Part shown: positions 859 through 20,571 of the stretch, one piece after another | Numbering within the stretch: position 1 is the stretch's first letter | How the letters are laid out: the number at the start of each line of letters is the position of its first letter | DNA from: a virus | Strand: one strand, 5' to 3' | Length of the DNA: 22,948 nucleotides | IMG/VR virus record: IMGVR_UViG_3300005833_000020 | Coordinates: 1 to 22,948 of that record | Notes under the pieces: generated by a model | Databases searched by the model: none | Told to the model about the DNA's origin: nothing | What the model saw: the letters and a program-made list of their open reading frames with translations, nothing else | Made by a program: the position numbers and the translations under genes

Positions 859-1833
859 ATGACCACAACTTCTACAGTAGCGCCGAGAGCTACAATTCCC
901 ATGTTTTTTGAGCGTGACATCCCATTTGAGTTGCGTGCTGCTGATGAAAATGGTGATGGTCTCACTCTAGAAGGTGTTGCTATTGTCTTTGGTCAGCGTG
1001 CCACAATTGAATCGTGGGAAGGCACCTTTGAGGAGAGCATCCGAAAGGGCTCCTGTACCAAGACGTTTCGTGAGCGTACTCCCGTAATCCAGTTCGATCA
1101 CGGTCGTCACCCTGTTGTTGGTTCCATCCCGATTGCCTCATTTTCTTCCGGTTTTCCACGTGAAACTGATAACGGTGTAGAGGTTAGAGCGCGAATCTTC
1201 GATAACTGGATGATGTTGCCGGTACGGGAAGCAATTGCTTCTGGCGCAATTCACGGAATGTCGTTCAGATTCGAAGTTGTTCGTGATGAATGGACAGACA
1301 AGAAAGGCGCAAAGCTTAGCCGTCAAGAAGTTTCAGATTTGCTCTGGACTCCTAATGCTTCTCGTTGCCCACTTCACCGCGAGTTGATCGAGCTTAAGGT
1401 GCCAGAAATGGGACCTGTTGTTTTTCCAGCTTACGAAGGTACATCGGTTAGTGTTCGTGCAAGTGATATCGCTTACCTGATTCGCAGTAATCCTGACTAC
1501 ATTCTTAACTTGCAACATACTCTAGGTTCATTAGCTCGCGCTGCTTTTGCTGAAACCGAACCTGTTATCGAAGACACTGAAATCCCTTCCGAGGCATCGG
1601 AAGTGGCACGCGCACTGTTGTTTAACTTGAATCCGGTAAAAGATTCAGGTTCAGAGGACTTGCCTGACGATGAGGTTCGGGTAGAGAATGACGACGCCAC
1701 GCCGCGCGAAAGCGCACCTGGCGACAATGAAAATGTTGCGCCGCCCGTTGAGGCACCCAACACTCCTGATGCTAGGCGAAAGTATGCCCGCCTAAACTAC
1801 GTGACTCTGAATAGAGTTGGAAAGGTCAAATAA
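859..1833 (+). CDS. Prohead maturation protease (HK97 / U35-type serine protease)
   Basis: This 324-residue protein probably cleaves the scaffolding region of the capsid protein and itself during prohead maturation. Family marks are visible: an N-terminal 'LEGVAIVFGQ' strand, a candidate catalytic His in 'FDHGRHPVVGS' (His81, with His84 nearby), the candidate catalytic Ser in 'GMSFRFEV' (Ser135), and the late 'PVVFPAYEGTSVSVR' segment at about residues 187-202 that closes the protease fold. The last 110 or so residues are acidic and low in complexity and may be a scaffold-like or self-cleaved extension. The ATG at 859 has an AAAGG Shine-Dalgarno at 846-850. Its stop overlaps the capsid start by one base (TAATG), which suggests translational coupling. 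The residue roles are inferred from family pattern. Confidence 0.92.
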   Translation: MTTTSTVAPRATIPMFFERDIPFELRAADENGDGLTLEGVAIVFGQRATIESWEGTFEESIRKGSCTKTFRERTPVIQFDHGRHPVVGSIPIASFSSGFPRETDNGVEVRARIFDNWMMLPVREAIASGAIHGMSFRFEVVRDEWTDKKGAKLSRQEVSDLLWTPNASRCPLHRELIELKVPEMGPVVFPAYEGTSVSVRASDIAYLIRSNPDYILNLQHTLGSLARAAFAETEPVIEDTEIPSEASEVARALLFNLNPVKDSGSEDLPDDEVRVENDDATPRESAPGDNENVAPPVEAPNTPDARRKYARLNYVTLNRVGKVK

Positions 1834-3269
1834 TGGGTGCCGACGAAAAGTTTGATCCTAAGAATTCTAAGCTTGTTGAACTGCGTACTCAACTTGAAGA
1901 GTTGGATGCGCAGATTCTCGACCTTGCTTCTCGGGATCACCTTGATGATGAGCAGGAAGCGCAGTGGGAAGACTTTACTGCTCAGCGCGATACGATTTTC
2001 CCGGAATACAAGAAGCTTGAGGAACGTGCCGCGCGAGTTGCACAGATTCGTTCTAACACTTTCCGAAAGATTAGCGGACTTCCCGACGCACGTAAGGCAT
2101 CCGAAGAGACTTTCGGTATGGATGTTCGCCCGATGGATTGGCGTACTGCGCGTGATGGCGCGCTTCGCATTCTTGAGGATCGGGAGTCGAATTACCCGCT
2201 TTCCGCTAGTGCGCTTGACACTCTCGACAAGAACATTCGCAATGCGCGAATGACTGAACTGGCACGACGCATCATTGTTACCGAGAATGATGGTTACCGT
2301 AACGCATTCTATAAGATGATGACTCGCTCTAATGCGGTTCTTACCGATGATGAGCGTATTGCCATGCTGCGTTATGAGGAGTATCGAGCCGCTGCGGAAG
2401 GCACTACTACCACAGGCGGTTTCGCAATTCCTGTGTTCATCGACCCCTCTGTGATTCTTACGGACCAGGAAACTGACAACCCGTTCCTTTCGCTTGCGCG
2501 ACAGGTTGATGTGAACACTAACGCTTGGAAGGGCGTTAGTGCTGCTGGTGTTTCGTGGTCGTTCGATTCAGAAGGCACTGCGGTTTCTGATGACGCAATT
2601 ACGATTGCGCAGCCCAGCGTTACCGTGTTCACTGCGCGCGGCTTCATTCCGTATTCCATTGAGGTTGGGCAGGACTGGCCCGATTTCCAGGGAGAGATGG
2701 CGCGACTTCTCTCTGTCGGTTATGACGAGCTTCTGATTGACAAGTTCAGTCGAGGCAATGGAACGTCTGAACCGCGAGGACTTCTCACCGCAATTAACGC
2801 TGTTACTGCTTCTCGTGTTGTTGCTACTACGAATGGTTCTTTCGGGTTCCAAGATGTGTACAACACGTGGAAGGCGTTGCCGCAGAAGTACCGTCGGCGC
2901 GCATCCTTCATGATGAGTGTCGGTGTCAACAATGCTATCCGGCAGTTTGGTGCGGCTAACGTTTACCACGCTGCAACTGTTACGCTTCCGGCTGGTGCTG
3001 CTGAAGTTCTGTTCAACCGGCCCGTTATGGAGAATCCGTACTTCCCTGACTTCACTGGTACTACTGCTGCTGAGACCCGTTTCGTGGTGGGCGATTTCAG
3101 CAACTATGTTGTTGCGCGTCGGCAGGGTATGAACGTTGAACTTGTTCCGACTCTGTTTGATGTGACCAATAACAGGCCAACCGGACAAAGAGGCTGGTTC
3201 GCATATGCCCGCATCGGGGGAAACAGTGTGAATGACACTGCTTTCCGTGTGCAGACGAACACCGCGTAA
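1833..3269 (+). CDS. Major capsid protein, HK97 fold with N-terminal delta (scaffold) domain
   Basis: At 478 residues this has the usual size for an HK97-type capsid protein fused to its own scaffold. Residues 1 to about 85 are highly charged and predicted coiled coil ('LVELRTQLEELDAQIL', 'YKKLEERAARVAQIR'), matching a delta domain removed by the protease upstream. The body begins near 'GTTTTGGFAIPVFID', the classic start of the mature fold, followed by 'ARGFIPYSIEVGQDWPDF' (E-loop and spine region) and 'RGNGTSEPRGLLTA', and late 'VGDFSNYVVARRQGMNVEL' and 'RGWFAYARIGG' strands. The codons are visibly richer in C- and G-ending forms (TTC, GCG, CGC) than those of the later tail genes, as expected for the most highly expressed product. 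No cleavage site can be assigned by eye. Confidence 0.95.
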   Translation: MGADEKFDPKNSKLVELRTQLEELDAQILDLASRDHLDDEQEAQWEDFTAQRDTIFPEYKKLEERAARVAQIRSNTFRKISGLPDARKASEETFGMDVRPMDWRTARDGALRILEDRESNYPLSASALDTLDKNIRNARMTELARRIIVTENDGYRNAFYKMMTRSNAVLTDDERIAMLRYEEYRAAAEGTTTTGGFAIPVFIDPSVILTDQETDNPFLSLARQVDVNTNAWKGVSAAGVSWSFDSEGTAVSDDAITIAQPSVTVFTARGFIPYSIEVGQDWPDFQGEMARLLSVGYDELLIDKFSRGNGTSEPRGLLTAINAVTASRVVATTNGSFGFQDVYNTWKALPQKYRRRASFMMSVGVNNAIRQFGAANVYHAATVTLPAGAAEVLFNRPVMENPYFPDFTGTTAAETRFVVGDFSNYVVARRQGMNVELVPTLFDVTNNRPTGQRGWFAYARIGGNSVNDTAFRVQTNTA

Positions 3270-3278
3270 CAGGTTGTA

Positions 3279-3382
3279 CGGCAAGGACTTCCGCGAGTCC
3301 TAACGTGCATAACGTGTCCGGGGTAAGTTTCGAGGGAAACTTGCCGAAGTAGTCTGAAAGACTTACCCCGGACACTATGCAC
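3279..3382 (+). other. Candidate structured RNA element downstream of the capsid gene
   Basis: This fills the 133-base gap between the capsid stop and the next gene. Arms read directly: hairpin A 3284-3289 with 3296-3301 (6 bp); outer stem 3305-3310 with 3377-3382 (6 bp); main stem 3314-3328 with 3361-3375 (15 bp, perfect, GTGTCCGGGG at its outer end). Inside the main loop are two further hairpins, 3325-3331 with 3336-3342 (7 bp, GAGG loop) and 3351-3355 with 3359-3363 (5 bp, GAA loop). Both compete with the inner end of the main stem, so a three-way junction is possible. Bases 3279-3285 are also perfectly complementary to 3340-3346 (7 bp), a possible pseudoknot or switch. No T-run follows the stem, so it does not look like an intrinsic terminator. 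Function is unknown. RNA processing, stability of the capsid message, or control of downstream translation are possible. Confidence 0.7.
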
Positions 3383-3402: not shown

Positions 3403-3687
3403 ATGTCTGAGAATGTAGTCTTTGCAACGTTCAGCACGTGGGTAACGCCTACGATTGCAATCAATCGCGGTGAGCCATGGGACATTAACGATCCCGTTGT
3501 GCAGTCTCATCCTGATTGGTTCCAGGCGGAACCGATAGACGTTCGCACGTCTCGTGCACCAGAAGCGGGAGACACGCTTCCGTGGGCGAAAGCTGTTGCT
3601 ACGCCTACAGTTAAGGCCAATGTTGAGGCAGCTACTGCCAATCCTGGTGAAAAGCGTTCTGTGACAACGGTTCACGGCAAGGCTTAG
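3403..3687 (+). CDS. Small protein of unknown function, probably head-associated
   Basis: This 94-residue protein has no family I can name. It contains 'INRGEPWDINDPVVQSHPDWF' split around residues 22-43, a pattern (G..W...DP.V..HP..F) seen in small uncharacterised proteins next to phage capsid and connector genes. The second half is Ala-, Thr- and Lys-rich and looks flexible. There is no signal peptide or membrane segment. The ATG lies just after the structured element and has a modest AGAGAG upstream. The next gene, the glycosyltransferase, begins 8 bases beyond its stop. Location right after the capsid gene suggests a head or head-completion role, but this is inference from position only. 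Confidence 0.8.
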   Translation: MSENVVFATFSTWVTPTIAINRGEPWDINDPVVQSHPDWFQAEPIDVRTSRAPEAGDTLPWAKAVATPTVKANVEAATANPGEKRSVTTVHGKA

Positions 3688-4558: not shown

Positions 4559-4680
4559 GTGACAACGGTTTTGAGAACGAACTAAATGTCATTGCCACGG
4601 CAGAAGTAACACATAACGATCCGTGTGTTCCTGAATGTCCTGTGTGTTACCCAGTGAGCTACCCAGAAGGAGTAAGTTAA
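4555..4680 (+). CDS. 41-residue Cys-containing mini-protein (TTG start)
   Basis: A frame of 41 codons plus TAA starts at TTG 4555 and overlaps the glycosyltransferase stop (TTGA). It ends directly before the ATG of the next gene, so it fills a gap that would otherwise be empty in a tightly packed operon. It is preceded by GAGGAGGT at 6 bases. The first half is acidic and polar ('SDNGFENELNVIATAE'). The second half has three cysteines in C-x3-C-x2-C spacing ('PCVPECPVCYPV'), with one His eight residues earlier than the middle Cys, which could bind a metal. Similarity to any family is not recognised. It may assist the adjacent glycosyltransferase or be a minor structural part; both are guesses. 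Its own last codons carry the AAGGAG Shine-Dalgarno (4667-4672) for the next gene. Confidence 0.7.
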   Translation: MSDNGFENELNVIATAEVTHNDPCVPECPVCYPVSYPEGVS

Positions 4681-5955: not shown

Positions 5956-7887
5956 GTGACGATTACTCTGCCTAGCACTAGCAATGTCTTAGGGCTAGGC
6001 TTTCCGCCGTTTATTGATCCTTTAGCTAGTGGTAATGTTGACAATATTCATCGAGTATTCGTCATTCAAGCATGTGCCTTTGCAGGTTCAAGTAGTAATA
6101 CAGCTACTAGTAGCTCATTCATTCCTGCAAAGAATGAGCTACTAGTAGCTTGTGTATCTTTAGATTCTAGCGCTTCTACAGACCCTCTTTCGACATGTTC
6201 TGATTCTCTTGGTGGAACATGGACTAGAAATAGAAATTGTGCTTCTGGTGATGGCGACACCCCGAGCGCTAGTGGTGCTGCTAGTGTTTTTACCAGACCA
6301 GTTGGTATCAATGATGTTACTGCCATGACGGTAACTGCTAGTGGTGATGTTGCTCTATGTGGTGCAATTTCCTTTGTGGTATATAGGGTTTCAACACGTG
6401 ATGGATCACTTCCCCTAACTGGTGCTACTGGTCACGGAACATCAAGTGCAAACAAGTTTACTGCTGCCTTAACGTCAACCTTTGATTACTCTACATTATT
6501 ATTGGCCGCTCTTGACTGGGGAGCGTTAGGCGCTCCTTCATCTCCTGAACTTACTTATATTAGTGGTACTCAAGGCGGTTTCATTTCATGGATTCAAGGC
6601 TATAGATACTTGGGTCCAAAGGGTGCGCAGTCTGTAACAATAGATGGCTTTGGTACTTCTACGACCGAATGGCGCTGGGCTGCTCTTGAAATTTATGCAG
6701 GTCAAAGTGTAGAACAAACAGTTATAGCAAACGTTATTGTCGATGGAATTGTTGGTTCTGGTGGTCCTTCTAGCGATGTAACCGCTACTGTTACAGCCGG
6801 TTCCAGTGTCATTGGTGTGAGTGGTGATATTGGAGCCGTAACCCAAGCAATCACAGCCGGTTCCAACGTCATTGGCGTGAGCGGTGACGTTGGAACTGTA
6901 ACTCAAGCAATCACAGTCGGTTCCAGTGTCGTTGGTGTAAGCGGTGACGTTGGAACTGTAACTCAAGCAGTCACAGTCGGTTTCAGTGTTATTGGTGTCG
7001 TTGGCACGATTGGTGTTGTAACTGCTACTGAGACAGCGACTCACAGTGTTGTTGGTTCTATCGGTGGTGCGCAGCCTCAAGGTCAAATTACTCAAACGCT
7101 AACTGCTGCAAGCACTGTTGTGGGAACAGTGCAGACGTTCGGTGCAGTAACCCAAGCAATCACAGTCGGTTCTAGTGTCGTTGGGATTGTTGCCAAGACA
7201 GGTGTTGTAACCGCTACTGAGACAGCGGCTCACAGCGTTGTTGGTTCCGTTATCTCTGGTGTAACGGGTTCCGTAACTGCAGTAGAGACAGCAGCGAGTA
7301 CGATTGTCGGCGCTGTTGCAGCGTTTGGTGCAGTGACTCAAACGCTAACTGCTGCAAGCACTGTTGTTGGAGTTGTTGCTAAGAGCGGTGTTGTAACTGC
7401 TACTGAGACAGCGGGTTACAACGTTGTTGGGTCTACGACCGCAGGTGTGATCGGCCAGGTCACACAAACGATCATTGCTGGCGCTTCGGTCGCTGGCCTG
7501 TGTGGTGCCCTCGGAAACGCCTCTCCTGCAATCGCTGCGGGCGCAACGGTGACGGCCCGGACCGATGGCACGGGGAGCGTGATCGCTAGCGTTGCAAGCG
7601 TGTACACGGTAGTAGCGCAGCGTGCCATCTCGACTCCGGTCAGTGCTCCTATCTCTATTAGCGCTATTGTCATTGCTTACGTTGTTGGTACGTATGGTTA
7701 TAGTCGAATCGGTACAGATTCACCCGGAATCGCTTATGCCGCAGTCGGTTCCAGTAATGGTCCTTACGGGACAGCAGATTCTAAAACAGATGCGCCACAT
7801 GGCCATGATGGAACAGGTATTCTTTCAGAAGGCTATGTAGGATCAACAGACATGCCACACGGCACTATCGGAGAAGGTGTTAGCTAA
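5956..7887 (+). CDS. Large repeat-containing virion protein (beta-sandwich plus 20-residue repeats)
   Basis: This 643-residue protein starts at GTG 5956 with an AGGTGGTG Shine-Dalgarno at 5940-5947. Residues 1 to about 250 form a lectin-like beta-sandwich ('SFIPAKNELLVACVSLD', 'DSLGGTWTRNRN', 'RWAALEIYAG'). Residues 275-562 are about 14 tandem repeats of 20 residues, some with 2-3 residue insertions, of the type V-T-Q-A-I-T-x-G-S-x-V-V-G-V. The C-terminal 80 residues are Gly-, Ser- and Asp-rich ('DAPHGHDGTGILSEGYVG'). Lack of Lys/Arg and alternating hydrophobic residues suggest an extended beta-solenoid or stalk. It ends with a TAATG overlap into the head-tail adaptor, so it is probably a head fibre or spike. 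The same repeat occurs in the distal-tail-like protein at 14421. The receptor or ligand cannot be read from the sequence. Confidence 0.85.
   Translation: MTITLPSTSNVLGLGFPPFIDPLASGNVDNIHRVFVIQACAFAGSSSNTATSSSFIPAKNELLVACVSLDSSASTDPLSTCSDSLGGTWTRNRNCASGDGDTPSASGAASVFTRPVGINDVTAMTVTASGDVALCGAISFVVYRVSTRDGSLPLTGATGHGTSSANKFTAALTSTFDYSTLLLAALDWGALGAPSSPELTYISGTQGGFISWIQGYRYLGPKGAQSVTIDGFGTSTTEWRWAALEIYAGQSVEQTVIANVIVDGIVGSGGPSSDVTATVTAGSSVIGVSGDIGAVTQAITAGSNVIGVSGDVGTVTQAITVGSSVVGVSGDVGTVTQAVTVGFSVIGVVGTIGVVTATETATHSVVGSIGGAQPQGQITQTLTAASTVVGTVQTFGAVTQAITVGSSVVGIVAKTGVVTATETAAHSVVGSVISGVTGSVTAVETAASTIVGAVAAFGAVTQTLTAASTVVGVVAKSGVVTATETAGYNVVGSTTAGVIGQVTQTIIAGASVAGLCGALGNASPAIAAGATVTARTDGTGSVIASVASVYTVVAQRAISTPVSAPISISAIVIAYVVGTYGYSRIGTDSPGIAYAAVGSSNGPYGTADSKTDAPHGHDGTGILSEGYVGSTDMPHGTIGEGVS
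6078..6150. repeat. 19-bp inverted repeat whose loop is complementary to upstream DNA
   Basis: Arms 6102-6120 and 6132-6150 are perfect inverted repeats of 19 bp around an 11-base loop. Each arm also contains the same 14-base perfect palindrome (AGCTACTAGTAGCT at 6102-6115 and 6137-6150). In addition, 6124-6132, which is mostly loop, is perfectly complementary over 9 bp to 6078-6086 (CTTTGCAGG), so the RNA could form a pseudoknot. The whole lies inside the coding sequence of the repeat-containing virion protein. The structure is directly visible; a role in frameshifting, pausing or recombination is not established. Confidence 0.85.
6778..7641 (+). repeat. Tandem 60-base coding repeat, about 14 units
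   Basis: Units begin with a Val codon and step by exactly 60 bases at 6778, 6838, 6898 and 6958, and continue with 60-, 66- or 69-base spacing to about 7641. Neighbouring units at 6838 and 6898 are nearly identical in DNA, indicating recent duplication or gene conversion. Two alternating subtypes are visible (VTQAIT/VTQTLT and VTATETA). The VTATETA subtype carries the longer linkers. Units after about 7440 are degenerate and GC-rich. The array is translated and lacks spacers, so it is not a CRISPR. Confidence 0.9.
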
Positions 7888-9187: not shown

Positions 9188-9496
9188 ATGGTTAGTAAGA
9201 AGCTGGCGGAATTCAAAGCAGAGCTAGAAGAAGAATGGTATACATACGTTGCGACAGAGGTCATTTACATTGGTGAGGCTCGAGCTTTCAATCCTGGTGA
9301 TCCTGTTCCGGTGAGTCATGTAAACCGTGGGATTGTTAAGTCTTCTCAGGTTGTCCGTCGAGAGGATGCTCCTCCTGACTTGGAAGTTGTTGTGCCAGTT
9401 AGGGTTACGCCTCCTCCTGGTGCTACTGACATGGCAAGTCCAGAAGACATTGCAGCGGCAGAGGCTGCTAATCGTGCTGCGGGAGTGATTGAGTAA
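9188..9496 (+). CDS. Small protein of unknown function in the connector region
   Basis: This 102-residue protein has a strong AAGGAG Shine-Dalgarno (9174-9179) overlapping the previous stop. The N-terminus is a charged helix ('KKLAEFKAELEEEW'), then 'ATEVIYIGEARAFNPGDPVP' with 'SHVNRGIV', a pattern also seen in small phage proteins near connector genes. Then come a basic stretch and a Pro/Ala-rich C-terminal helix ('SPEDIAAAEAANRAAG'). I cannot assign a function. It is coupled to the next gene by TAATG. A neck or minor structural role is inferred from position only. Confidence 0.78.
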   Translation: MVSKKLAEFKAELEEEWYTYVATEVIYIGEARAFNPGDPVPVSHVNRGIVKSSQVVRREDAPPDLEVVVPVRVTPPPGATDMASPEDIAAAEAANRAAGVIE

Positions 9497-17196: not shown

Positions 17197-20100
17197 ATGA
17201 CGCTAGAAATTGAGAATGTTCTGCCAATGTCAACAGGCGGAACTTACTACGTCATCGGTACATGTGTCGCAACGCCAATGAATTCAACGGTTGTCGTCAA
17301 CATTCATGGAACCGAAGTAACTCTGCCTCACTTGCGTGGCTATGTTCCTGCTGTCAATGATTCAGTGTTGGTTATGGTGCAAGGAACACAGCGCATTGTT
17401 GTTGATGCAGTTACTAATCCTAGCGATCCTATAGGAAATAGGGAAGGCGCACCTATCCCTACGCAACCGACTCCAACACAGCCAATTTCACCTATTTCAT
17501 TAGAGACTGTTTCTACTCGCACATTCGTGGCTTTGGCTACTGCTGATTATGCTAATGGTGCGTGGCGTACTGACACTCGGCAGCCACACCAAGGAGATTC
17601 TGGGAATGGATTGAATACTGGTGTTTGGTTTTATGGCCGCGGAATCAATACTGCGCTAAATGGTTCTACGGTGACTTCTGCAAAGATATATCTTAGGCGA
17701 ACTGCTGGCGGCGTGTACACGTCTATAGCTCCCACGGTGTATTTGGTGACACAGGCCACGAAACCTGATGTTGCACCTACGCTAATCGGTTCTCCTGTAA
17801 CACTTTCACCGATTCCTTATGACTCGGAAGGATGGATTGATTTACCTGTTGATTTCGTTCAGCAGTTAGCTAATGGCAATGCATTCGGCTTAGCTGTTTA
17901 CAGTCCTACTGCTAATCCTTATATGGCCTTCTCGTCATTGGCGGAACGCAGGCAAAGTGGAGCGCTCCAAATCACGTACAGAAGTGAAACCGATCCTGGT
18001 GGTGGAGGATCGTATAAGTACGGTCAGGTGTTCTCTCAAATCCGTTCTGCCCCAACGGTTAGCGTTGTCGGTTCTGTTTCTAGTAATGCGCAGATTGCTA
18101 CCTTCTCAACAGTTAAAGCTAGCACTATTATAACGAAACCTGTTGGAACAGTAGTAGGTGATGTGCTGATTGCTATTCACTATAATGATACTGATGGCGC
18201 ATTGGTGTCTATGACTGCACCTGCCGGTTGGACTTTGCAGGGTTCATCTTTTACTGGAACGTCTGGATTCTGCAAGATTTGGTACAAGGTAGCTACTGCA
18301 AGTGAGCCAGCAACATATGACTTTGGTGCAGCTTCTGGTTCTGAGAATGCAGTAATTCTTCTACGTGCAATTGGAATTAATCAAACTACGCCTTTCTTAG
18401 CAAATCCTTCTTTCATCTCTGCTACAGGACCGACTACATCTCACGATGCACCTTCTGTATCCGCTACTGCGGAAGGTGTTTTGGTGTGTTCTTGGCAGAC
18501 TCAAGTTCCAGTTGTAGCTAATAACTGGACAGTGCCAACAGACATGATTCCATTAGGCGACTTGAGTCAGCCTGCTGATTGGGTTACTGCTATTGCGGCA
18601 TACATGCGACTTTCAGCGAATGTTGCTTCTGGCGTTAGAACGGCAACAAGCACGTCAATGCCTGCGGGAACATTTGGAGACATTGGAGTTTCGTTCATTC
18701 TTAATCCTTCTGGTACAGGTGGAGGAGGGGGAGGAGGAGGAACTATTCCAGGTGCTTTTATGATGGGCGCTTCTGGTGTTGCTGTCGCTAATGGAGAAAT
18801 GGATGCTTGGCTAGTTAATGGTCCATTGCAGATTGGGGGGACATGGGCCGATACCCCCGCCGCTCAAACTGAACAGTATTCAACGACTCCTGGTAGTGGT
18901 GAATTCGGTTCATGGACAAGGGCTTTGGACATTGCTGTTGGTGCAATCTTCAAACAGAATGGCGAAACGTGGGCTAACGCTGCGGCTGGAAACTACGATT
19001 CTCGTTGGCAGACAATTGCTGACAAGTTGAAATCTAACCTTGGTTCTCGTGATCCTCGGTATTGGTTCGTAAACTTTGCACGTGAGATGAATGGTTCATG
19101 GTCCGATTGGAATGTTCAGCCGGGAGAAGAAGCTAACTTCCGTACGGCTTACGGACGATTCCAGAACATTCTTAAAGCAACCATTCCTGGAATCAAAACG
19201 ATTCTTGTCTACAATGATGGTAGTGATACGGGATGCGATACTGACGCAATCTGGCCTACGGCAACGCCTCCCGATGTACTTGGTGTAGATACGTACAACG
19301 CTTGGCCTCATGTTACGGATCAAACTGGCTGGAATACTAAGATCAATCTTACGGAAGGTGGAGGTAGGCCTGCCGGTATTGAAACATGGCGACAGAAGGC
19401 TCTAAGTCGTGGCGTACCAATTGCTTTCCCGGAATTTGGTAATCCAGGAGTGAATGATGGTGGAGGAGGAGGGGGAGGAGACGACCCATATTGGTTGCAG
19501 CAAATGCTCACCTATTGCCAATCTAAAGCTGGTACAGGTGCAGGCCAGGTAATGTATGCAATCTATTTCAACATCGGTGTCAATGGAGGCTATTCTCCTG
19601 ATTACATTCTGTTTGCTGGCTCGAGTGGTTATACGATTCACCAGCCCTTGAATAGGGAAGTTTTCCGAACGATTGCACGATCCATTGGCGCGGCTCCTCC
19701 TCCTCCACCGCCCCCTCCTCCACCGACAACAAGCGGATTCCCTTCTCCCGCAGTCGGTTTGTGGTATTTCAAGTGGAATACACCAACGCTTGGTGGATTT
19801 CCTAGCGATGTACAAACAACACTTAATTACGTGATGATGGCATTTGCTGAAACCACTAGTGCTGGAACGGGAAGCGTTGGATTCTCTGGTTATACAGGTT
19901 ATAGTTCAGATGCGCAGATTAAAGCTGATGTAGTTACAATGAAGGCACGTGGAATTAATGTAGCTATCTCTATTGGTGGTTCCGGTAGCAACGGACTTGT
20001 GAAGCTACAGAATTCTACCCACCGTTCACAGATGCTTGCGTCTGTTCAATCAATGGTGAATACGTTCGGGTTTAATGGTGTCGATTTTGACATGGAAGAC

Positions 20101-20571
20101 CCTAACGATTGGACACCAAGTGAAATGGCAGCCTTCTGTGGACAACTCAAAGGTTACTTTGGACAGAATTTTATCGTCGGAATGACGATGGGACTTTATG
20201 GAACACTAGGTGAAAATTGGCGTTCTGCTGCGGTTTCGGCTGGAAGCAATTGCGACTATTACGCTCCTATGTTGTACGACTTCCCAGAAGCGGGAGATAG
20301 CAGACTGACCGGAGTTGCACAAGATAAGATCGACTATCTTGCTGCTAGTGGATTGCCTAAGAGCAAGATTATTCTTGCATTCATGTTGCGAGTGAACGCA
20401 GAAAGCTATCCTAATGCCTCTCCATTGTCTGTCGCACAAACGGCATGGAACACTGCTAAGGCTAATAACCCAACTCTCCGTGGCGCTTTCCTTTGGGAAC
20501 ATGCGCGAGATGCTAGATCATCTCCTTCATGGCCTTTCGTTCGCAACATCGGAACTTCGATTAGAGGATAA
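17197..20571 (+). CDS. Large tail-tip protein with GH26-like and GH18-like glycosidase domains
   Basis: This 1124-residue protein is a string of domains. Residues 1 to about 75 resemble an OB-fold; a Pro/Thr/Gln linker spans 87-99; about 101-264 is a beta-sandwich; about 270-506 is a lectin-like sandwich ('GDVLIAIHYND', 'APAGWTLQGSS'). After a poly-Gly run (about 508-516) comes a GH26-like barrel: 'FVNFAREMNGSW' with acid/base Glu630, 'DVLGVDTYN', and nucleophile Glu746 in 'IAFPEFG'. It is interrupted by a second Gly run near 755. Ten prolines (834-843) lead to a GH18-like barrel: 'ISIGG' (Ser925-Gly928) and 'FNGVDFDMED' with Asp963, Asp965 and catalytic Glu967. GH18 enzymes cleave GlcNAc-containing glycans; GH26 enzymes cleave mannans or related polymers. 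It probably degrades host wall or surface glycan on arrival. The His usual before the GH26 acid/base is Arg here. Confidence 0.85.
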   Translation: MTLEIENVLPMSTGGTYYVIGTCVATPMNSTVVVNIHGTEVTLPHLRGYVPAVNDSVLVMVQGTQRIVVDAVTNPSDPIGNREGAPIPTQPTPTQPISPISLETVSTRTFVALATADYANGAWRTDTRQPHQGDSGNGLNTGVWFYGRGINTALNGSTVTSAKIYLRRTAGGVYTSIAPTVYLVTQATKPDVAPTLIGSPVTLSPIPYDSEGWIDLPVDFVQQLANGNAFGLAVYSPTANPYMAFSSLAERRQSGALQITYRSETDPGGGGSYKYGQVFSQIRSAPTVSVVGSVSSNAQIATFSTVKASTIITKPVGTVVGDVLIAIHYNDTDGALVSMTAPAGWTLQGSSFTGTSGFCKIWYKVATASEPATYDFGAASGSENAVILLRAIGINQTTPFLANPSFISATGPTTSHDAPSVSATAEGVLVCSWQTQVPVVANNWTVPTDMIPLGDLSQPADWVTAIAAYMRLSANVASGVRTATSTSMPAGTFGDIGVSFILNPSGTGGGGGGGGTIPGAFMMGASGVAVANGEMDAWLVNGPLQIGGTWADTPAAQTEQYSTTPGSGEFGSWTRALDIAVGAIFKQNGETWANAAAGNYDSRWQTIADKLKSNLGSRDPRYWFVNFAREMNGSWSDWNVQPGEEANFRTAYGRFQNILKATIPGIKTILVYNDGSDTGCDTDAIWPTATPPDVLGVDTYNAWPHVTDQTGWNTKINLTEGGGRPAGIETWRQKALSRGVPIAFPEFGNPGVNDGGGGGGGDDPYWLQQMLTYCQSKAGTGAGQVMYAIYFNIGVNGGYSPDYILFAGSSGYTIHQPLNREVFRTIARSIGAAPPPPPPPPPPTTSGFPSPAVGLWYFKWNTPTLGGFPSDVQTTLNYVMMAFAETTSAGTGSVGFSGYTGYSSDAQIKADVVTMKARGINVAISIGGSGSNGLVKLQNSTHRSQMLASVQSMVNTFGFNGVDFDMEDPNDWTPSEMAAFCGQLKGYFGQNFIVGMTMGLYGTLGENWRSAAVSAGSNCDYYAPMLYDFPEAGDSRLTGVAQDKIDYLAASGLPKSKIILAFMLRVNAESYPNASPLSVAQTAWNTAKANNPTLRGAFLWEHARDARSSPSWPFVRNIGTSIRG

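What the first reader, a model, noticed from the sequence alone, without database searches (positions are those of the whole stretch)
3279..3382. Multi-stem structured RNA candidate between capsid gene and head cassette
A perfect 15-bp stem (3314-3328 / 3361-3375) lies inside a 6-bp outer stem (3305-3310 / 3377-3382). The main loop carries two additional hairpins that compete with the inner end of the stem, a separate hairpin lies upstream (3284-3301), and there is a 7-base long-range match (3279-3285 with 3340-3346). It occupies nearly all of the only sizeable gap in an otherwise packed operon and has no T-run, so it does not look like a simple terminator. A switchable fold or processing element controlling capsid versus downstream expression would be new.
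Basis: partly seen in the sequence, partly recalled or inferred. Interest (0 to 1): 0.72.

Follow-up and report, generated by a model that had tools for sequence, protein, structure and literature searches.

The report
Hairpin closing the phage capsid gene
Just after the gene for the virus's main shell protein the RNA folds into a strong hairpin, and nearly all related viruses of actinobacteria have a differently spelled hairpin in the same place, so it probably marks the end of the abundant shell-protein message rather than acting as a new switch.

Summary
The hairpin is real: a perfect 15-bp stem (17 with G-U) 44 nt after the capsid stop, inside a 6-7 bp outer stem, gap z = -7.0. It is not unique to this phage. 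Of 20 related contigs (window included), 17 carry a 12-21 bp G+C-rich hairpin within 60 nt of the capsid stop, and two carry it after an inserted small ORF. Across 91 distinct post-capsid gaps, 84% hold a very strong hairpin, against 1.4% of 6,134 control windows from the same contigs. Sequences differ almost completely while pairing persists. Stem irregularities are mostly G-U rather than A-C (40 against 10), which points to sense-strand RNA. Gordonia, Mycobacterium and Rhodococcus phages, TM4 and phiC31 have it; seven Firmicutes phages with related capsids do not. Tails lack T-runs.

Most likely it is the 3'-end hairpin of the abundant capsid mRNA: a leaky U-less (phiC31-like, 'I-shaped') terminator and/or exonuclease block, with read-through supplying the head-tail genes. 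Termination itself is untested. The proposed switch is weak: an alternative inner hairpin exists and folds first, but loses by 3.7 kcal/mol and is absent from the closest relative. The element is a member of a known kind; its breadth looks under-described.

The parts
1833..3269 (+). major capsid gene (HK97-type)
   Evidence: Pfam Phage_capsid 1.1e-28, phrog_10 7e-37
3284..3301 (+). small upstream hairpin, 7 bp
   Evidence: pair probability 0.8-1.0; no homologue seen in the closest relative L004
3305..3310 (+). outer stem, 5' arm (pairs with 3377-3382)
   Evidence: pair probability 0.56-0.67
3314..3330 (+). main stem, 5' arm (17 bp, one G-U; 15 bp perfect)
   Evidence: retained with compensatory change in L004
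3322..3345 (+). alternative inner hairpin GGTAAGTTTC/GAAACTTGCC, predicted to form first during synthesis and be displaced by the full stem
   Evidence: -14.6 kcal/mol; prefix folding; p < 0.001; absent from L004
3351..3363 (+). second small loop hairpin AGTCT/AGACT, overlaps the inner end of the 3' arm
   Evidence: sequence; appears in the constrained three-way-junction fold at -39.9 kcal/mol
3359..3375 (+). main stem, 3' arm, tail TATGCACC without T-run
3377..3382 (+). outer stem, 3' arm
3403..3687 (+). next gene, head-tail connector-like
   Evidence: phrog_9538 1.5e-8; no consensus promoter between the hairpin and this gene

Best explanation
The element is the 3'-end hairpin of the capsid message: one instance of a widespread class of strong, U-less hairpins placed a median of about 11 nt after the major capsid gene of actinobacteriophages. 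As RNA polymerase leaves the capsid gene, the hairpin forms in the nascent RNA and ends or trims most transcripts there, either as a leaky U-less ('I-shaped') terminator or by stopping 3' exonucleases. This gives an abundant, stable capsid mRNA, while the minority of read-through transcripts supplies the low-copy head-tail genes. Shown here: the structure, its conservation as a structure across phages, its sense-strand RNA signature, its position and the missing U-tract. Inferred: termination and/or stabilisation, leakiness, and the effect on protein stoichiometry. The enlarged loop with a second copy of part of the 3' arm is a lineage-specific elaboration that may slow hairpin formation (inference).
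For: Gap folds at z = -7.0. 17 of 20 related contigs, window included, have a 12-21 bp hairpin within 60 nt of the capsid stop. In L007 and L015 it sits 5 and 40 nt after an inserted 98- or 86-aa ORF instead, so it tracks the end of the capsid unit. In 91 distinct gaps the mean hairpin score is 36 against 18 for shuffles; 84% score >=30 against 1.4% of 6,134 control windows. Compensatory changes: 17/17 pairs kept between window and L004 with one double change (two sequences only), and three double-changed pairs among L008/L010/L011. Stem mismatches are G-T 40, A-C 10. Present in Gordonia, Mycobacterium and Rhodococcus phages and absent from seven Firmicutes phages with related capsids; TM4 and phiC31 also have it. 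In Eyre and Xula it is the top-scoring hairpin of the scan. Major tail protein genes carry one too in Xula, Sbash, TM4 and Madeline. No consensus promoter follows the hairpin in the window, so read-through is expected.
Against: No transcript data. The review PMC12288462 cites Czyz 2014, whose title says mycobacterial RNAP requires a U-tract; that paper could not be read here. Hairpins at convergent gene ends of such phages carry somewhat more T than post-capsid ones, so the post-capsid type may not be primarily a terminator. A few relatives (for example L033, L089, L094) lack a strong one, and so does Giles.
Confidence: 0.72

Rival explanations
1. It does not terminate transcription at all; it is an RNA processing/stability element. 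The stem (24 bp including the outer stem) is cut by RNase III or simply blocks 3' exonucleases after endonucleolytic cleavage downstream, stabilising the capsid part of one long late transcript.
For: No U-tract: only 3 of 81 tails have 4 or more T in 8, and T is lower than at convergent gene ends of the same kind of phage. No promoter is visible for the downstream genes. The window's stem plus outer stem makes a 24-bp rod with a 2-nt bulge.
Against: Most relatives have stems of 12-18 bp, short for a classical RNase III substrate (own knowledge). U-less terminators are documented for an actinophage (Ingham 1995, cited in PMC8355165).
Confidence: 0.35
2. It is a switchable RNA: an early-forming inner hairpin (and a small second hairpin) competes with the main stem, so termination or processing depends on folding kinetics or a ligand/protein.
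For: The inner hairpin 3322-3331/3336-3345 is beyond chance, is the MFE of partial transcripts before the 3' arm is made, and the three-way junction containing it is only 3.7 kcal/mol less stable.
Against: Closest relative L004 has a simple hairpin. Most relatives have short loops (median 6 nt). Alternative pairs have equilibrium probability <0.01 and the long-range pair 0. No Rfam family matches.
Confidence: 0.08
3. It is a DNA-level palindrome (protein-binding, replication or recombination site) and its RNA fold is incidental.
For: Perfect inverted repeats can be DNA sites, and both strands fold.
Against: Stem irregularities are G-T (tolerated as G-U in sense RNA) rather than A-C, 40 to 10, p = 2e-5 before allowing for relatedness. 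Placement is tied to the capsid stop codon (median 11 nt). Sequences do not share a motif across phages.
Confidence: 0.04

Closest known systems
[quoted passage not shown] 1995, seen only as a citation in PMC8355165)
   Same: Strong hairpin without U-tract, actinophage. phiC31 itself has a 16-bp U-less hairpin after its capsid gene.
   Different: The title places the described ones in the early region; this one is inside the late operon, where downstream genes must still be transcribed. Termination not tested here.
I-shaped intrinsic terminators of mycobacteria (PMC12288462)
   Same: G+C-rich hairpin, no U-tail, within 50 nt of a stop codon.
   Different: In the middle of a co-directional virion operon rather than at an operon end.
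Phage T7 terminator T-phi after capsid gene 10 (own knowledge, not tested)
   Same: Hairpin directly after the major capsid gene, incomplete termination letting downstream virion genes be transcribed.
   Different: T-phi has a U-tract and acts on T7 RNA polymerase.
Mu-like gpT downstream element (structured RNA candidate after a capsid gene; recalled, not retrieved)
   Same: Position after a major capsid gene.
   Different: No Rfam family matched the window; the present class has no conserved sequence.

Membership tests
Canonical (L-shaped) Rho-independent terminator | G+C-rich hairpin near the gene end | tested here: met
Canonical (L-shaped) Rho-independent terminator | U-tract directly after the hairpin | tested here: not met
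   window tail TATGCACCTAAA; class mean 1.25 T in 8
U-less (I-shaped, phiC31-type) actinophage terminator | strong hairpin shortly after a stop codon, without U-run | tested here: met
   stem starts 44 nt after the capsid stop, no T-run
U-less (I-shaped, phiC31-type) actinophage terminator | actinobacterial host | tested here: inconclusive
   relatives include an Amycolatopsis prophage (L035) and Gordonia/Mycobacterium/Rhodococcus phages; the window itself has no host label
U-less (I-shaped, phiC31-type) actinophage terminator | transcription stops at the hairpin without Rho | not testable with these tools
   needs in vitro transcription or 3'-end mapping
Rfam structured RNA families | covariance-model score above gathering threshold | tested here: not met
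   no match in window; best sub-threshold hits are eukaryotic families, judged chance
RNA switch / riboswitch-like element | conserved mutually exclusive pairings across relatives | tested here: not met
   alternative inner hairpin absent in L004; simple hairpins elsewhere
RNase III processing site | about two helical turns of near-perfect dsRNA | tested here: inconclusive
   17+7 bp with 2-nt bulge in the window, but 12-18 bp in most relatives

The most novel reading that the evidence does not exclude
U-less hairpins after major capsid (and often major tail) genes are a dedicated, actinophage-wide class of RNA element that sets virion protein stoichiometry by a route other than ordinary intrinsic termination, with lineage-specific regulatory elaborations: a second competing 3' arm in the window, and a loop-to-downstream pairing at a constant 4-nt spacing in L008, L010, L011 and L015.
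Probability: 0.27. Interest if true: 0.6.

Novelty: new member of a known kind. Interest (0 to 1): 0.37.

Why it matters
A single hairpin turned out to be an instance of a near-universal feature of the sampled actinophage structural operons, kept by pairing rather than by sequence. If 3'-end mapping confirms a role, it explains how one late transcript can give very different amounts of capsid and connector proteins in G+C-rich hosts. It would also offer a natural panel of U-less hairpins to test whether actinobacterial RNA polymerase terminates without a U-tract, which the cited literature disputes.

Tried and rejected
DNA search of phage records with the gap: no match. Exact search for the 5' arm in viral contigs gave 8 contigs that were not followed up. 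Rfam at gathering and permissive thresholds: nothing credible. tRNA/tmRNA: none. Consensus terminators with T-run: none at this site. Long-range pair 3279-3285/3340-3346: rejected (probability 0). H-type pseudoknot for L008/L010/L011/L015: loop-downstream pairs are real as complementarity (p 0.0003-0.012), but a 4-nt connector across a 13-15 bp stem looks sterically tight, so left open. Literature searches found no description of a general post-capsid hairpin in actinophages; the library lacks most subscription papers, and Ingham 1995 and Czyz 2014 could not be read. A covariance model was not built because the stems share no alignable sequence.

Full report
What is there. The window is a 22,948-base IMG/VR virus record with a rightward head-tail operon: portal end, protease, HK97-type capsid (1833-3269), connector-like protein (3403-3687) and on to tail genes. 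The 133-nt gap after the capsid holds the described stem. The 15-bp perfect inverted repeat is exact and extends to 17 bp with one G-U. The region folds at z = -7.0, 0 of 200 shuffles. The outer stem and the small upstream hairpin exist; the 7-base long-range match does not form in the predicted ensemble. The gap is not the only sizeable one: 4559-4680 is 122 nt with no unusual fold.

Relatives. Capsid-based searches gave contigs with 56-93% capsid identity, including an Amycolatopsis prophage. Counting the window, 17 of 20 contigs with a complete capsid 3' end have a 12-21 bp G+C-rich hairpin within 60 nt of the stop; L031 and L034 share the same one. In L007 and L015 a 98-aa or 86-aa ORF has entered directly after the capsid and the hairpin lies just beyond it. 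L033 has only a weak one. Closest relative L004 keeps all 17 pairs, with one double change (A-U to G-C) and four single-sided changes; with two sequences the shuffle control cannot discriminate, but slid registers lose about half the pairs. L008/L010/L011 show three double-changed pairs of 13.

Breadth. Known phages with 29-35% capsid identity (Gordonia Madeline and Eyre; Mycobacterium Xula, Sbash, Mycofy1; Rhodococcus Shagrat and REQ1) have the hairpin directly after the capsid gene; Rhodococcus Madraxi has it after the small gene that follows the capsid. Seven Firmicutes phages with related capsids have short gaps without one. TM4 (26 bp) and phiC31 (16 bp) have it; Giles does not. A further 80 loci found with a distant alignment raise the set to 91 distinct gaps: mean score 36.3 against 17.8 for dinucleotide shuffles, 79 above all 20 shuffles. 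84% score 30 or more, against 1.4% of 6,134 windows elsewhere in the same loci. That search returned only its best 80 of 569 hits, so the sample leans towards Madeline-like capsids.

RNA or DNA. With a finder that treats G-T and A-C mismatches alike, stems of 77 hairpins contain 40 G-T and 10 A-C (p = 2e-5, relatedness not corrected). G-T on the sense strand is a legal G-U pair in the sense RNA, so selection appears to act on the sense transcript.

Terminator or not. Tails have no T-run (mean 1.25 T in 8; 3 of 81 with 4 or more) and are C-rich. Hairpins at convergent gene ends in Eyre, Xula, Sbash, Madeline and phiC31 carry more T (mean 3.1 against 1.8 in the best 8-nt window, p = 0.0009, only 16 strand-ends, several with no good hairpin). 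Post-capsid hairpins are therefore of the U-less type. [quoted passage not shown] No consensus promoter lies between hairpin and next gene, so some polymerases must pass. Strong hairpins after the major tail protein gene in Xula, Sbash, TM4 and Madeline fit a role at the ends of highly expressed virion genes. I therefore favour a leaky U-less terminator and/or 3'-exonuclease barrier. These two are not separated by sequence evidence.

The switch idea. The window differs from its relatives in having a 28-nt loop that contains a second partial copy of the 3' arm: GGTAAGTTTC can pair with GAAACTTGCC (p < 0.001) before the full stem is made (prefix folding). The three-way junction with that hairpin is 3.7 kcal/mol less stable than the full stem (-39.9 against -43.6). 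It may delay the main hairpin, but it is absent from L004 and from the class in general, so a conserved switch is not supported.

Caveats. Nothing here measures transcripts. Hairpin scores are a simple stem score. Host assignment of the window rests on relatives.

Noticed in passing
L008:4472-4517, L010:4452-4498, L011:4429-4478, L015:4755-4805: In four relatives the hairpin loop is complementary (6-8 bp) to a segment starting exactly 4 nt after the stem, with a T-A to C-G compensation in L011; a possible pseudoknot or alternative hairpin.
   Followed up: partly
window 6102-6150: 19-bp perfect hairpin (about 22 bp with a mismatch) lies inside the 643-aa ORF 5956-7887, the highest-scoring hairpin of the window; reason unknown.
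   Followed up: no
window 6798-6994: Series of 17-bp hairpins made by tandem coding repeats (VGVSGDVGTVTQAITVGSS-type) in the same ORF.
   Followed up: no
L009:4424-4484 (Amycolatopsis pretoriensis prophage, also L035): Post-capsid region has two mutually exclusive stems sharing GAGGGGG, an attenuator-like layout.
   Followed up: no
L064 (Xula) 9305-9347, L150 (Sbash) after 9249, L149 (TM4) after 6205, L151 (Madeline) after 8991: Strong U-less hairpins also follow the major tail protein gene in these phages, but none of comparable strength was found after the likely tail protein gene in the window.
   Followed up: partly
L010, L014, L033 downstream of the capsid hairpin: Extra sequence/ORFs seem to be inserted between the hairpin and the connector gene in these contigs; the gap looks like an insertion hot spot.
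   Followed up: no
window 17197-20571: 1124-aa tail-region protein carries a C-terminal glycosyl hydrolase family 18 domain.
   Followed up: no
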